Assembly: GCF_014161445.1 (NCBI RefSeq)
Contig: NZ_JABBXA010000017.1
Location: forward strand, 1 to 64,000
Source: Microbispora sp. H13382
GTDB lineage: Bacteria > Actinomycetota > Actinomycetes > Streptosporangiales > Streptosporangiaceae
Length of the DNA stretch: 64,000 bases
Reading direction: 5' to 3'
Shown: positions 9,939 to 14,893 of the stretch, in pieces
Position numbering within the stretch: the stretch's first letter is position 1
How the letters are laid out: each line of letters begins with the position of its first letter
Notes under the pieces: model-generated
What the model was told of the DNA's origin: nothing
Databases searched by the model: none
The model's input: the letters and a program-made list of their open reading frames with translations, nothing else
Translations under genes and position numbers: made by a program

Positions 9939-11537
9939 TCAGGCCCTGTCGAGGATGAGGTCGGCGGCGTGCCAGGCCATCGCCATGATGGGGCCGTTCA
10001 GGTTGCCCGAGATCATGGTCGGCAGCACCGAGCAGTCGACGATCCGCAGGTTGTCGAGGCCCCGCACGCGCAGCCGCGAGTCGACCACGTCGTCGTCGCC
10101 GGGGCCCATGGCGCAGGTGCCCATCGCGTGGTAGCCGCAGTAGCCGCCGCCCAGCGCCGCGTCGACGATCTCCTCGTCGGAGTCCACCTGCGGCCCGGGA
10201 AAGGTCTCGTGGGCGAGCCGTCCCGCGATCGGCTCCTGGGCGAAGTACTCCCGCATGCGGCGGAACAGGTCGACGCCGACGCGCCGGTCGTGCTCGGAGC
10301 CGAAGTAGTTGGGCTCGATGCGCAGCGGCGCGTCCGGGTCGGCGGAGGTGATGGCCACGCTGCCCTCCGCGGTCGGGCGGAGGATCTCGGCGACGACCGA
10401 GACCCCGGGCTGCCGCTCCACCGTGACCGTCTCGCCCGCCCGGTACGTCGCGACCGACCACGGCCCCATCAGGAGCTGGGCGTCCGGCCGGTCCAGCTCG
10501 GGCCGGGTCTTCAGGAAGGCGATCACGTCGTAGGCCGGCGCGGCGAGCGGGCCCCCGCGGTTCACCAGGTATCGCAGCGCGGTGACGCCCTGCCGCAGCG
10601 GCGTGGACAGCATGCGGTTGTAGCCGAGGTCGTCCTTCAGCCGGAACTTCAGCGCCAGGCACCGGTGCTCGCGCATGCGCGCGCCGACCATCGGCCGGTC
10701 CAGCCTGACCTCGACCCCGGCCGGCCGCAGCACATCCGCGGGGCCGATCCCGGACGACTGCAGCAGCTTCGGCGTGCCCAGGCTGCCCAGGGACAGGACG
10801 ACCTCCCGGGCGGCGCGATACTCGACCAGGGCGCCGCCGGCGTCCCGGGCGGTGACCCCGACGACCTTGTCGCCGTCGAACAGCAGCCCGGTCACCGTGG
10901 TCCCGGTCACGACGGTGAGGTTGGCCCGGTCGCGTACGGGGTGCAGGAAGGCCCTGGCCGCGCTGAACCGCCGTCCGTCCTTGATGGTCGCCATCGCGTG
11001 GCCGACGCGTTCGTCGTCGGACTCGTTGACGTCCGGCATGGCGGTCAGGCCGAGCGCGGCGCCGGATGCGATCATCTCGTCGCAGAGGGGATCGGGATCG
11101 CGCGGAGGGGACACGTGCAGCGGCCCGCCCGCTCCGCGGGTGGCCGTGGCGCCGAGGGCGTTGTCCTCCATCGCGCGGAAGACCGGCAGCATGGTCTCCC
11201 AGCCCCAGCCGGGGTTGCCGAGCCGTACGAGTTCGTCGTAGTCGGCGCGGTGGCCGCGGTTGTACACCATGCCGTTGATGGAGCTCGACCCGCCGAGAAC
11301 CCGGCCGCGCGGCCATATCTCGGCCTGGCCGTCGGGACCGAACGGCTGCGTCCGGTAGTGCCAGACCTTCCGCGGATCGTCGAAGAGTTTTCCGAAGCCC
11401 TTGGGCACGTGGTAGAGCGGGTGGCGGTCGGCGCCGCCCGCCTCGACCAGCAGCACGCGGACGGCCGGATCCTCCGACAGCCGGTTGGCCAGGACGCATC
11501 CGGCCGACCCGGCCCCGATCACTAAATAGTCGATCAC
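9939..11537 (-). CDS. GMC-family FAD oxidoreductase (choline dehydrogenase-like)
   Basis: A 532-residue flavoprotein. The start GTG at 11537 is taken because the protein then opens directly with VIDYLVIGAGSAGCV, the FAD-binding dinucleotide fold, with AGGG just upstream. GMC signature 1 is GGSSSINGMVYNRG at about 80-95 and signature 2 is GSLGTPKLLQSSGIGP near 250-265. The C-terminal HAMGTCAMG and NGPIMAMAWHAAD carry the catalytic His and the final FAD contact. The family oxidises alcohols (choline, polyethylene glycol, sugars, sterols) and the substrate here cannot be deduced. Leu codon 5 is TTA, rare in such GC-rich DNA. The next gene (NYN domain) starts upstream on the same strand and ends 29 bp before this start, so the two may be co-transcribed. 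Confidence 0.9.
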   Translation of the reverse strand: MIDYLVIGAGSAGCVLANRLSEDPAVRVLLVEAGGADRHPLYHVPKGFGKLFDDPRKVWHYRTQPFGPDGQAEIWPRGRVLGGSSSINGMVYNRGHRADYDELVRLGNPGWGWETMLPVFRAMEDNALGATATRGAGGPLHVSPPRDPDPLCDEMIASGAALGLTAMPDVNESDDERVGHAMATIKDGRRFSAARAFLHPVRDRANLTVVTGTTVTGLLFDGDKVVGVTARDAGGALVEYRAAREVVLSLGSLGTPKLLQSSGIGPADVLRPAGVEVRLDRPMVGARMREHRCLALKFRLKDDLGYNRMLSTPLRQGVTALRYLVNRGGPLAAPAYDVIAFLKTRPELDRPDAQLLMGPWSVATYRAGETVTVERQPGVSVVAEILRPTAEGSVAITSADPDAPLRIEPNYFGSEHDRRVGVDLFRRMREYFAQEPIAGRLAHETFPGPQVDSDEEIVDAALGGGYCGYHAMGTCAMGPGDDDVVDSRLRVRGLDNLRIVDCSVLPTMISGNLNGPIMAMAWHAADLILDRA

Positions 11538-11566
11538 GCCCTCATCGTGCCCACGCCGCTCCGGCT

Positions 11567-12046
11567 TCAAGCGGCCTGGGGGACGGGCAGCTCGAAGGTG
11601 ACGGTGTCGGGGACCGCGGTGTAGAGCCGCCAGCTCAGGCAGGCGCGCTGGGCGACGACGGTGACGTGCAGGCCGCAGCCCGCCAGCCAGAGGGCCAGGT
11701 CGGCGAAGTAGCCGTCGCCCGACCCGATCACCGCCCGCTCGAACCGCAGGTCCACCCGCGCCGTACGGGCCGCCTCGTCGAGGGCCTGATCGGCGCCGTC
11801 CCGTCCCGAGCGGGCCAGCAACTGCACCCCGCGCAGCGCGATCCCCACGGAGACGAGCGCGTTGTGGTTGACCGCCACGATGAACTGGTCCAGCGGCCCG
11901 ACCGGCACCGTCCGCTGGTAGGCGTGCATGACCCGCTGTACGTCGTGAGTCGTCGGGAGCGCGGTCCCGGTCAAATTCTCGATGTCGAGGAGATGGATCG
12001 CGCGCCCGCGGCGCAGCGACCTGAGGCGCGTGGTGGGGGTGCTCAC
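11567..12046 (-). CDS. NYN/PIN-like nuclease-domain protein
   Basis: A 159-residue protein made of one NYN (LabA-like PIN) domain. Conserved acids that would bind Mg2+ are visible: Asp21 in HLLDIENLTG, Asp86 in GRDGADQALDE, and Asp111 in VIGSGDGYFADLA. The family is mostly endoribonuclease. GTG at 12046 is preferred because AAAGGATC lies 5 bp upstream; an in-frame ATG at 12085 lacks a ribosome site. It is divergent from the DNA methylase gene over a 145-bp region, and ahead of the GMC gene. The pairing of a predicted RNase with a methylase and a nucleotide pyrophosphatase is reminiscent of defence loci, but a housekeeping RNA role is equally possible. Confidence 0.8.
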   Translation of the reverse strand: MSTPTTRLRSLRRGRAIHLLDIENLTGTALPTTHDVQRVMHAYQRTVPVGPLDQFIVAVNHNALVSVGIALRGVQLLARSGRDGADQALDEAARTARVDLRFERAVIGSGDGYFADLALWLAGCGLHVTVVAQRACLSWRLYTAVPDTVTFELPVPQAA

Positions 12047-12095
12047 GATCCTTTGCTCCCTTCCATGACGACTCCTGGCGTCCATTAGAGCATGT

Positions 12096-12156
12096 GTTGA
12101 CCGAATCAACCAGTCCTTGCCGGGACGTTGCCCGTGTCCGGTGCATCGGATATGGT
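12096..12156. promoter_or_regulatory. Divergent promoter region between NYN gene and methylase gene
   Basis: On the plus strand TTGCCC (12128-12133) and TATGGT (12151-12156) are spaced by 17 bp, 35 bp before the methylase GTG. On the minus strand TTGATT and TAATGG (read from about 12109 to 12082) are spaced by 16 bp ahead of the NYN gene. The perfect inverted repeat GTTGA-CCGAA-TCAAC at 12096-12110 overlaps the minus-strand -35 box. The methylase carries its own N-terminal helix-turn-helix, so autoregulation here is an attractive inference. Confidence 0.5.
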
Positions 12157-12191
12157 CCGGTCTGATCGGACAACTGGGAAGGCGGAGCGGC

Positions 12192-14186
12192 GTGCGGCGA
12201 GACGTACAGGTCACCGCGGCGGACATCGCCCGCCTGGCCGGCGTGGGACGCGCGGCGGTCAGCAACTGGCGGCGCCGGCACGACGACTTCCCCGAGCCCG
12301 TGGGGGGCACGTCCACCAGCCCGGTGTTCTCCTTCGCGGAGATCCGGGAGTGGCTGCGCGGCCACGCCGAGGACAGGGAACTCGCCGCGGACGAGTGGCT
12401 CTGGCAGGACCTGCGCGCGACCGTCGACGACGACGACCTCGCCGATCTGATCGCCGACCTCGGGGCCTTCCTCGTGTACGTGCAGCACGAGGCGGACGAC
12501 TGGGACGGGCTGTCGGCCGCCGACGACGGGACGGTCGCGCGGGACCTCCCGGCCCGGGTGCGCGCGACGTGCGCGAAGACCGCCGGTGCGGAGGCGTTTC
12601 CCGAGACCGTTCCGGTGACCCGGGTGCCGTTGGTCCGCTCGATCGCCCGGCTGGCCGCCGAGCGCGGCGCCCGCGACACCTTCGAGTTCCTGCGCGAGCG
12701 GTACTTCGAGGTGCACACCAGGCGCGTCTACTCCACCCCCGCCGAGATCGTCTCGCTCACGCTCGACCTCGTGGGCGACGGGTTCGGCTCACTGCTCGAC
12801 CCGGCCTGCGGTTCTGGCCGCATCCTCGGCCGCGCGCTGGAGCGCTCGCCCGGGGCCCGGCTGCTCGGCCAGGACGTCGATCCCGTGGCCGCCCGGCTTA
12901 CCGCCGTACGGCTCGCGCTGCGTTGCGACAACGCGCGGATCAGGGCGGGAGACTCGCTGCGCGCGGACGCCTTCCCCGGCGAGTTCGTCGACGCGGTGGT
13001 GTGCAACCCGCCGTTCAACGACCGCAACTGGGGATACGAGGAGCTGACGGCCGATCCCCGGTGGGAGTACGGCCTGCCGCCGCGCGTGGAGCCCGAGCTG
13101 GCCTGGGTGCAGCACGTGCTCGCGCACCTGGCGCCCGGAGGCGTGGCCGTGCTCCTCATGCCCCCGGCGGTGGCCAGCCGCAGGTCGGGCCGGCGAATCA
13201 GGTCGCAGTTGCTGCGGCGCGGCGCGTTGCGCGCGGTCATCACGCTCCCGCAGGGCACCGTGCCCAACGTGGCGGTCGGGTTGACGCTGTGGATCCTGTG
13301 CCAGCCGGCCGAGGGCGGCACGCCGAGCCACGTGCTGATGGTCGACACCTCCGGCAGGCCGGACGACTACGCCCGGGTGGCCGTCGAGGCCTGGCGGGAG
13401 TTCGGTGTGGGGCGCGAGCTGGACGAACCGGGAGTCAGCAGGTCGGTCCCGCTCGTCGACCTGCTCGACGAGGACGTGGACCTCACCCCCGCCCGCTACC
13501 TGTCCACGGCGGCCGACGACCTGTCGCCGGAGCGGATCGCCGCAGCCCGCTCCCGGCTCACCGGGCTGCTCGGGACCGTCGCCGGGCTGATGCCCGCGGC
13601 GGGGAGGCCGCCGTCGGAGGAGTTCGCCCCGGTCCCGCTGCCCGAGCTGGTGCGGCGCGGCATGCTCGTCCTGGAACAACAGACGCCGGCCCGGCCGGGG
13701 GAGGAACCCCCGCGGGAGGCGCCGGTGCTCACCGTCGAGGACGTGCTCGAAGGCCGGTCCGCGACGGGAACCCCCGAGCACGCCGGGGCGAAGCGGATCG
13801 TCACGCGGCCCGGCGACGTCGTGGTGCCCCAGGTCGTGACCATCCCGGTCGCGCGGGTGCTGGCGAAGGGCGACGCGCTGCTCGGCCCGTACCTGTCGCT
13901 GTTACGGCCCGACCCCGAGGCGCTCGACCCGGACTTCCTCGCCGGTTTCCTCTGCGCGTCCATCAACGTGCGTCATTACAGCTCCATGTCGTCGCGCTAC
14001 CGGGTGGACGTACGGCGTGCGGAGGTGCCGCTGCTGCCGATGGAGGAGCAACGCCGGTACGGCGAGGCGTTCCGGCGCCTGGCCGAGTTCCGGACGGCCC
14101 TTCGCGAGGCGGCGGCGCTCGGAGAGGACCTGGTCAGGCTGATGGCGGACGGTCTCACCCACGGCGCGGTGGGACCGGCCGAGTAG
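12192..14186 (+). CDS. HTH-containing N6-adenine DNA methylase with type I specificity-like tail
   Basis: A 664-residue protein with three parts. Residues 1-60 form a helix-turn-helix (VTAADIARLAGVGRAAVSNW). Residues about 170-430 are an HsdM-type gamma-class methylase with TPAEIV, the SAM motif DPACGSGRILG near 203 and the adenine catalytic motif NPPF near 271. Residues about 480-664 resemble a type I specificity (HsdS) half: a late RIVTRPGDVVVP segment, then EEQRRYGEAFRRLAEFRTALREAAAL, a coiled-coil-like helix. So methylase and target recognition appear fused. GTG at 12192 is chosen for its GGCGGAG ribosome site. No restriction subunit is near. Leu codon 571 is TTA. The predicted pyrophosphatase gene follows after 11 bp. 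Solitary regulator, orphan methylase or modification arm of a defence system are all possible. Confidence 0.85.
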   Translation: MRRDVQVTAADIARLAGVGRAAVSNWRRRHDDFPEPVGGTSTSPVFSFAEIREWLRGHAEDRELAADEWLWQDLRATVDDDDLADLIADLGAFLVYVQHEADDWDGLSAADDGTVARDLPARVRATCAKTAGAEAFPETVPVTRVPLVRSIARLAAERGARDTFEFLRERYFEVHTRRVYSTPAEIVSLTLDLVGDGFGSLLDPACGSGRILGRALERSPGARLLGQDVDPVAARLTAVRLALRCDNARIRAGDSLRADAFPGEFVDAVVCNPPFNDRNWGYEELTADPRWEYGLPPRVEPELAWVQHVLAHLAPGGVAVLLMPPAVASRRSGRRIRSQLLRRGALRAVITLPQGTVPNVAVGLTLWILCQPAEGGTPSHVLMVDTSGRPDDYARVAVEAWREFGVGRELDEPGVSRSVPLVDLLDEDVDLTPARYLSTAADDLSPERIAAARSRLTGLLGTVAGLMPAAGRPPSEEFAPVPLPELVRRGMLVLEQQTPARPGEEPPREAPVLTVEDVLEGRSATGTPEHAGAKRIVTRPGDVVVPQVVTIPVARVLAKGDALLGPYLSLLRPDPEALDPDFLAGFLCASINVRHYSSMSSRYRVDVRRAEVPLLPMEEQRRYGEAFRRLAEFRTALREAAALGEDLVRLMADGLTHGAVGPAE

Positions 14187-14197
14187 GGTCGGTTGCA

Positions 14198-14554
14198 GTG
14201 AGCGGTGAACTGGAGCACCTGACGGCCCGGTTGCGCGAGTTCGTACGCGTGCGGGACTGGGAGAGGTTCCACACGCCCAAGAACCTGGCGATGGCCCTCG
14301 CCGGTGAGGCGGGGGAGCTCGTCGCCGAGTTCCAGTGGCTGACGGCCGAGGAGTCGCGGAACCTCGACGAGGACGCCCTGCGCAGGGTCCGCGCCGAGAT
14401 CGGAGACGTCATGGTGTACCTGGTCAGGCTGGCCGACGTGCTGGGCGTCGACCTCGCGGAGGCCGCCAACGCCAAGCTGGACGACAGCGAGCGCCGGTAC
14501 GACCCCGAGACCTATCGCGGCTCCGCCAGGAAGGCGCCCCCGATGACCTCGTGA
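14198..14554 (+). CDS. MazG-like nucleotide pyrophosphohydrolase (iMazG/dCTPase type)
   Basis: A 118-residue all-alpha NTP pyrophosphohydrolase that would cut (d)NTPs to NMP and pyrophosphate. The divalent-metal signature is complete: E37-x2-E40 with E44 (AGEAGELVAEFQW) and E67-x2-D70 (EIGDVMVYL), spaced as in the EXXE...EXXD family motif. Size and the trailing ADVLGVDLAEAANAKL are typical of the small iMazG/RS21-C6 (dCTPase) branch. GTG at 14198 lies 11 bp beyond the methylase stop, so the two are probably one operon. Family members clean up modified nucleotides or act in stress and phage responses; which applies here is not shown by sequence. Confidence 0.85.
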   Translation: MSGELEHLTARLREFVRVRDWERFHTPKNLAMALAGEAGELVAEFQWLTAEESRNLDEDALRRVRAEIGDVMVYLVRLADVLGVDLAEAANAKLDDSERRYDPETYRGSARKAPPMTS

Positions 14555-14596: not shown

Positions 14597-14893
14597 TCAC
14601 TCCGGCCAGGCGAGGAGCTGGAACCAGACGGACTTGCCGTACGGGGTGAGGGCCCAGCCCCAGTGGTGGGAGAAGGCCTGGATGATCGCGAGCCCCCGGC
14701 CATGCGCGTCGAGCGTGCCGGCGCGGCGTAGCCGCGGAAGCGTGGGACAGGGGTCGTGGACGTCCACGACGAGCAGGTCTTTCTCGCGGCTGACCGTGAC
14801 GCGGACCGTACTCGTCGCCGAGGCTCCGCTGATGCCGGTCGTCCCGAATCCTCCGCGCGACGCGGAATCTGCCGTCCATGGTGACTGAGCCAC
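14597..14893 (-). CDS. Truncated ATP-binding (anti-sigma kinase-like, HATPase_c) protein
   Basis: A 98-residue protein corresponding to the C-terminal half of the RsbW-like ATPases abundant in actinomycetes. Visible are a central strand VRVTVSREKDLLVVDVHDP (G1-like box, here without the usual DxGxG glycines) and HGRGLAIIQAFSHHWG (G2 box), ending YGKSVWFQLLAWPE. The N-terminal half with the N-box (usually ELVTNAxxH), needed for Mg-ATP binding, is absent, and none of the other minus-strand frames upstream supplies it. GTG at 14893 has GAAGAGGG about 8 bp upstream. Full-length relatives are about 130-160 residues, so this is probably a decayed copy, although it could still be expressed. Confidence 0.6.
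   Translation of the reverse strand: MAQSPWTADSASRGGFGTTGISGASATSTVRVTVSREKDLLVVDVHDPCPTLPRLRRAGTLDAHGRGLAIIQAFSHHWGWALTPYGKSVWFQLLAWPE

What the first reader, a model, noticed from the sequence alone, without database searches (positions are those of the whole stretch)
11567..14554. NYN nuclease, HTH-methylase-specificity fusion and iMazG pyrophosphatase in one neighbourhood
Seen: a NYN-domain gene with all expected acids faces an HTH/N6-adenine methylase carrying an HsdS-like tail, and an iMazG-type pyrophosphatase follows 11 bp later. Known: NYN/PIN proteins cut RNA, HsdM-type proteins methylate adenine, and MazG-like enzymes degrade dNTPs; all three activities recur in phage-defence loci. 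No restriction subunit is present. Inference: the set may be a defence or stress system in which methylation marks self and the RNase or dNTPase is the effector; the shared palindrome and the methylase's own HTH suggest common control.
Basis: partly seen in the sequence, partly recalled or inferred. Interest (0 to 1): 0.75.

Follow-up and report, generated by a model that had tools for sequence, protein, structure and literature searches.

The report
RNase gene paired with HTH-methylase regulator
A soil bacterium carries a gene for a small RNA-cutting type of enzyme back to back with a DNA-methylase gene that also looks like a gene switch, and relatives of this pair head anti-virus (restriction) operons in distant bacteria, which suggests a built-in guard that acts when the defence is attacked.

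Summary
The three genes are real: NYN (11567-12046, -), HTH-N6-methylase-TRD, here M' (12192-14186, +), MazG-like (14198-14554, +). NYN and M' form a genuine pair; MazG is a bystander. The host is a Microbispora. Outside its family the same NYN gene lies directly before M', with overlapping stop/start codons in 8 of 8 genome loci, often heading HsdM-HsdS-HsdR operons: Gemmatimonadota, Acidimicrobiia, and Dietzia, Mycolicibacterium and Corynebacterium plasmids; once DISARM DrmA/DrmB. In Streptosporangiaceae the pair is divergent around an operator found exactly once per Microbispora genome (12 of 15), which tracks the M' partner (15 of 17 loci; 0 of 39 other NYN loci, five of them distant M' pairs). 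The window's genome has no HsdM_N or HSDR_N match: a stand-alone pair under purifying selection. M' keeps its HTH while catalytic motif IV often drifts. Best model: M' is sensor and repressor, NYN the RNase released when M' is lost or titrated; PrrC-like in logic, not in family. RNase activity, toxicity and phage defence are untested. Seven literature searches found no description.

The parts
11567..12046 (-). NYN-domain (PIN-like) nuclease gene, 159 aa, GTG start
12047..12191 (.). divergent intergenic region; by eye, NYN promoter -35 12104-12109 and -10 12082-12087 (minus strand), M' promoter -35 12128-12133 and -10 12151-12156 (plus strand)
   Evidence: conserved block in 19 aligned loci of 8 genera; promoter boxes assigned by eye, no tool
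12095..12112 (.). operator TGTTGACCGAATCAACCA (pattern TGTTGAYNNNATCRACCA), overlapping the proposed NYN promoter
12192..14186 (+). M': HTH + N6-adenine methylase + TRD, 664 aa, GTG start
12207..12365 (+). HTH (winged-helix-like) part of M', residues 6-58
   Evidence: (weak)
12729..13511 (+). methylase core of M', residues about 180-440, motif I at 203-209, motif IV NPPF at 272-275
13629..14162 (+). single TRD-like part and C-terminal helix of M', residues about 480-657
14198..14554 (+). MazG-like gene; neighbour, judged not part of the unit

Best explanation
The unit is a two-gene module, NYN plus M'. Shown: the genes are neighbours in distant bacteria, share an operator (Streptosporangiaceae) or overlap in coding sequence (elsewhere), and often head a type I restriction-modification operon; in the window's genome they stand alone, without an HsdM_N or HSDR_N match. 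Inferred: M' binds the operator with its HTH and represses NYN and itself; its methylase-TRD half samples DNA target sites, and in Microbispora probably still methylates adenine there. When M' is drawn away or blocked, by many unmodified sites on incoming DNA or by DNA-mimic anti-restriction proteins, NYN is made or freed and cuts RNA, stopping the infected cell. This is the logic of PrrC guarded by EcoprrI, built from unrelated parts.
For: Pair recurs: 22 of 76 named NYN loci within 340 bp, including Gemmatimonadota, Acidimicrobiia and a Cenarchaeum MAG; 7 of 13 plasmid NYN records. NYN stop overlaps an in-frame M' start in 8 of 8 genome loci outside the family. Type I context: HsdM, HsdS, HsdR behind the pair in L247, L250 and three plasmids; HsdM_N protein behind M' in Planomonospora L129, HSDR_N protein in Microtetraspora L125. 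Operator private to the locus and tracking M' in the family. dN/dS 0.26 and 0.28 for NYN and M', 12 genomes, no internal stops. M' folds like type I M subunits; the top PDB match was solved with the phage protein Ocr, and Ocr and ArdA bind a type I M1M2S complex (PMC9613975, passages).
Against: No activity, toxicity or phage data exist. 52 of 76 NYN loci have no methylase match within 1.6 kb, 23 of them have another divergent partner, c3. M'-like genes are common without NYN, including M'-HsdM pairs in L112 and L119. The operator is absent from 5 distant M' pairs, so operator control is not ancestral. NYN may have a non-defence role. HTH binding to the operator is not shown.
Confidence: 0.45

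Rival explanations
1. A two-gene restriction-modification system: M' methylates its sites and NYN is the restriction nuclease that cuts unmethylated DNA, standing in for HsdR.
For: No HSDR_N match in the genome; M' in Microbispora keeps motifs I and IV and a TRD; both genes selected.
Against: In relatives NYN accompanies a complete HsdR, so it does not replace it there; the family's solved relative is an RNA-stability protein, MARF1; NYN proteins are held to be RNases (PMC10853773 reference title, and recalled).
Confidence: 0.15
2. A cellular regulatory pair without a defence role: M' is an epigenetic or transcriptional regulator and NYN an RNA-processing enzyme.
For: Present in 13 of 15 Microbispora genomes, if G014's contig end is counted; many M' paralogues stand alone, five copies in this genome; NYN occurs with c3 in a conserved gene context in other genera.
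Against: Type I and DISARM contexts and plasmid carriage of relatives; segment absent in G002 and G004.
Confidence: 0.22
3. The reader's three-gene system, with MazG as a dNTP-degrading effector.
For: MazG lies 11 bp behind M' in the window, follows M' in 9 of 12 Microbispora loci and is under purifying selection (0.16, n=9).
Against: Absent from the pair in 3 Microbispora loci and in the other genera compared; elsewhere MazG lies away from M'.
Confidence: 0.05
4. A decaying remnant of a type I system with no remaining function in Microbispora.
For: HsdM and HsdR are missing here and in several relatives of the genus; a neighbouring gene, c16, is a fragment.
Against: dN/dS 0.26-0.28, no internal stops in 12 genomes, intact motifs and operator.
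Confidence: 0.08

Closest known systems
PrrC anticodon nuclease in the EcoprrI type I R-M operon (E. coli)
   Same: An RNase-type gene genetically linked to a type I R-M system; PrrC is silenced by the R-M enzyme and activated by a phage anti-restriction factor (PMC2610378 abstract; PMC3710099 and PMC3874165 passages)
   Different: PrrC has an ABC-ATPase and a HEPN nuclease; here the nuclease is a small NYN protein, with an extra HTH-methylase-TRD protein; in the window no M, S or R subunit is left
Fused M-TRD gamma-class / minimal type I methyltransferases (e.g. Vibrio vulnificus enzyme, PDB 7eew; PacII M1, 7vru)
   Same: Fold of methylase core and TRD; NPPF motif as in m6A M1 subunits (PMC9613975 passages)
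   Different: N-terminal HTH, NYN partner, frequent loss of motif IV in relatives
NYN-domain RNases (MARF1; LabA-like)
   Same: Catalytic acids and profile match
   Different: Short stand-alone protein tied to an HTH-methylase
Type II toxin-antitoxin pairs with PIN-like toxins (VapBC; recalled)
   Same: Small PIN-like nuclease beside a DNA-binding partner with a private operator
   Different: The partner is a 664-aa methylase-TRD protein, divergent or behind the nuclease gene; toxicity and neutralisation untested
DISARM
   Same: One relative, L257, has NYN and M' before DrmA and DrmB
   Different: The window has neither; a chance or modular link is possible

Membership tests
NYN (PIN-like) nuclease family | Sequence or profile match to NYN | tested here: met
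   44 of 49 members at E<=0.01; MARF1 profile match; the window protein alone is below the Pfam cut-off
NYN (PIN-like) nuclease family | Conserved catalytic acids | tested here: met
   invariant D21, E23, D53, D86, D111 in 49 sequences; their catalytic role is recalled
NYN (PIN-like) nuclease family | RNase activity | not testable with these tools
   no assay
Type I restriction-modification | HsdM, HsdS and HsdR present in the window's genome | tested here: not met
   0 HsdM_N and 0 HSDR_N matches; met in relatives
Type I-like fused M-TRD adenine methylase | Motifs I and IV, methylase core and TRD | tested here: met
Type I-like fused M-TRD adenine methylase | Methylation of DNA | not testable with these tools
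   needs long-read sequencing of strains
PrrC anticodon nuclease | ABC-ATPase plus HEPN nuclease | tested here: not met
   159-aa NYN protein
PrrC anticodon nuclease | Linked to and silenced by a type I enzyme | not testable with these tools
   link seen in relatives only; silencing needs an assay
DISARM | DrmA and DrmB beside the methylase | tested here: not met
   no such gene among the neighbours called in the window; met in L257
MADS | MAD2 equivalog match | tested here: not met
   18.1 bits against a cut-off of 720; PADLOC mad2 match is generic, E 4.2e-22
Toxin-antitoxin | Adjacent pair with a private operator | tested here: met
Toxin-antitoxin | Toxicity neutralised by the partner | not testable with these tools
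   needs expression assays

The most novel reading that the evidence does not exclude
M' belongs to a family of HTH-methylase-TRD proteins that have become DNA-site sensors rather than enzymes: they read the methylation or occupancy state of DNA and hold a dedicated NYN RNase in check, a plug-in guard at the head of type I and DISARM operons that can also work alone, as in Microbispora.
Probability: 0.35. Interest if true: 0.82.

Novelty: new variant of a known kind. Interest (0 to 1): 0.64.

Why it matters
Restriction systems are usually described as M, S and R. An RNase plus a methylase-like sensor heading the operon in several phyla would mean that a second, self-directed line of defence is built in more often than PrrC suggested, with unrelated parts. 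A methylase-like protein kept for reading DNA while its catalysis drifts would be an unusual kind of regulator. The Microbispora pair is the reduced form in which the core can be tested by itself.

Tried and rejected
MazG as third component: rejected on distribution. MADS membership: rejected. A trans partner HsdM/HsdR in the same genome: no match; 7 and 6 of 15 Microbispora genomes do have HsdM_N and HSDR_N matches. Operator as a regulon site: rejected for Microbispora, one copy per genome. Operator as ancestral: not supported, absent in 5 distant pairs. Operator as the methylase's own target: left open; its right arm varies. NYN as a member of the PrrC family: rejected. Rfam families and tRNAs in the window: none. 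A fold search with the NYN model could not be run. Papers: searches of an open-licence library found no description of the pair; PMC8547433 was listed for NYN with HsdM, but a find in its main text returned no occurrence, and its supplements were not looked at. Closed journals, preprints and REBASE were not searched.

Rows dropped and labels: the methylase profile was built from 52 rows that include several HsdM, so a match at 100 bits or more need not be an HTH-type M' (L167, 132 bits, probably is not). The NYN tree used 70 of 76 named loci plus the window; L182, L187, L188, L190, L205 and L219 were left out; in it L167 was relabelled, and L161 stayed labelled although its methylase lies 1.5 kb away. 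For one search, 22 of the 52 rows were removed by locus and 4 for lack of an HTH signature (three HsdM and one short row), so the HTH of the remaining 26 unpaired rows is partly by selection; two of these 26 (L136, L141) have a NYN gene 0.8 and 2.3 kb away. One search examined 56 of 76 loci (17 methylase, 21 of 23 c3, 18 other). My gene caller is home-made and misses genes. The match list was cut by the tool.
Full report
1. What is there. The window lies in an 8.71-Mb genome whose closest named NYN loci are Microbispora. NYN is 159 aa; alone it misses Pfam's cut-off, but 44 of 49 aligned relatives match PF01936 at E<=0.01, the family profile matches the solved MARF1 NYN domain, the acids are invariant and the model is confident. 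M' is HTH + N6-adenine methylase + one TRD, with motifs DPACGSG and NPPF. The HTH is a weak Pfam hit, but it is seen in the model and in relatives.

2. The pair is real, MazG is a bystander. NYN and M' are divergent neighbours in 14 fetched loci (L005-L018: 12 Microbispora, two other genera); MazG follows in 9 of the 12 Microbispora loci. A second set adds divergent pairs in five more genera (L125, L128, L132, L133, L138). MazG has a match in 27 of 60 relatives, but outside those nine loci its 20 places (18 genomes) are on another contig than, or over 20 kb from, the listed methylase matches (by eye, against one search's cut list). Two of 15 Microbispora genomes (G002, G004) lack the segment; in G014 the contig ends inside NYN.

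3. Elsewhere. A scan of species genomes gave 76 NYN loci. Of these 24 have a methylase-profile match within 1.6 kb (22 within 340 bp), 23 a different neighbour of unknown family (c3), and 29 neither. These loci are related, so they are not independent counts; on a NYN tree (71 rows, quick method, several long branches) the M' label needs 8 changes against a shuffled mean of 20.3. Outside the family the order becomes NYN then M' on one strand, and in 8 of 8 such genome loci an in-frame M' start overlaps the NYN stop (three are close Gemmatimonadota relatives, and the Cenarchaeum one is a 4.7-kb MAG contig that may be mis-binned). Behind them lie HsdM, HsdS and HsdR in L247 and L250, and DrmA and DrmB in L257. 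Among plasmids 13 records match NYN, and 7 of the 13 have an annotated N-6 DNA methylase next to it, 3 of them followed by HsdM-HsdS-HsdR; in Gordonia no R gene is listed. Of these seven, three overlap by 4 bases, one by 1, and three have gaps of 1, 2 and 58. The other six plasmids have other neighbours.

4. The operator. Nineteen intergenic regions of 8 genera share a block; the perfect GTTGA-N5-TCAA form is in 15 of 19. The pattern TGTTGAYNNNATCRACCA occurs once in each of 12 of 15 Microbispora genomes, at this locus, and not in the other three; the backward control gave none. Among 56 NYN loci examined it is exact in 15 of 17 loci of the family with M', has one mismatch in one and is absent in one (L161, where the methylase is 1.5 kb away), and is absent from 21 c3 loci and 18 others, 5 of them distant M' pairs (Fisher p 8e-12, which ignores relatedness). 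When the partner changes, the upstream DNA changes with it; c3 loci carry conserved TTCCA repeats instead.

5. Enzyme or sensor? In 34 NYN-paired M' rows the HTH core stays near AVSNWRRR. Motif IV NPP[FYW] is kept in 18 of 19 NYN-paired rows of the family and 2 of 15 outside it, and in 8 of 26 unpaired M' rows (regrouped from its printed rows; selection of the 26). Some variants (DPPF/Y, SPPF) could be active (recalled); EPPF, HPPF, IPPF, DPPL and DAPF are less likely. So the constant function is probably DNA binding (inference). The Microbispora form keeps its catalytic motifs.

6. Origin of the window form. Microtetraspora, Planomonospora and Sphaerimonospora relatives have a second methylase behind M'; the Planomonospora one is HsdM_N by Pfam, and Microtetraspora L125 also has an HSDR_N protein. 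L112 and L119 have M' and HsdM without NYN. Planomonospora L129 and some Microbispora loci share the following genes c16-c19-c24, and the window keeps a piece of c16. This fits loss of HsdM in the Microbispora line (inference). The window's genome has no HsdM_N or HSDR_N match. NYN and M' are under purifying selection, dN/dS 0.26 and 0.28 against 0.15 and 0.20 for two neighbours.

7. Mechanism. Shown: pairing, operator or coding overlap, type I context, motif states. Inferred: M' represses NYN and senses DNA sites; NYN is an RNase that stops growth when M' is drawn off. The model is PrrC, silenced by its type I enzyme and released by a phage anti-restriction factor (PMC2610378 abstract; PMC3710099 and PMC3874165 passages). 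Ocr and ArdA bind a type I M1M2S complex (PMC9613975 passages), and the top fold match of M' was solved with Ocr, so a phage inhibitor acting on M' is plausible. Nothing here proves RNase activity, toxicity or defence.

8. Novelty. Searches of an open-licence library found no description of the pair; closed journals, preprints and REBASE were not searched. I call it a new variant of a known kind, an RNase guard on a restriction system.

Noticed in passing
L137:10022-10789 and 23 of 76 named NYN loci: A protein of about 255 aa with no Pfam match (c3) is the alternative divergent neighbour of NYN; its intergenic region has conserved TTCCA repeats about one helical turn apart.
   Followed up: partly
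L037, L039, L045, L049, L115, L116, L120, L123: M' paralogues without NYN sit between a PP2C-phosphatase-like gene (c14) and a Ser/Thr-kinase-like gene (c2); both named by eye from sequence.
   Followed up: no
L296, L299, L303 (plasmids): Other plasmid NYN genes head operons with a PP2C phosphatase; one also has FHA and FtsW/RodA genes.
   Followed up: no
window 14603-14845 (-): C-terminal fragment of an ATP-binding-type gene (c16), 86% identical to the complete copy in L104.
   Followed up: yes
window 9939-11570 (-): GMC-oxidoreductase-like gene directly behind NYN on the same strand in most Microbispora loci; named by eye.
   Followed up: no
   Followed up: partly
L107:14383-16491, L119:11900-13516, L129:7169-9442, L125:1800-3920: GmrSD_N (L107), DUF6119 (L119) and AIPR (L129) genes by Pfam, and a GmrSD-like gene in L125 by cluster, near M' loci, in line with defence islands.
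   Followed up: no
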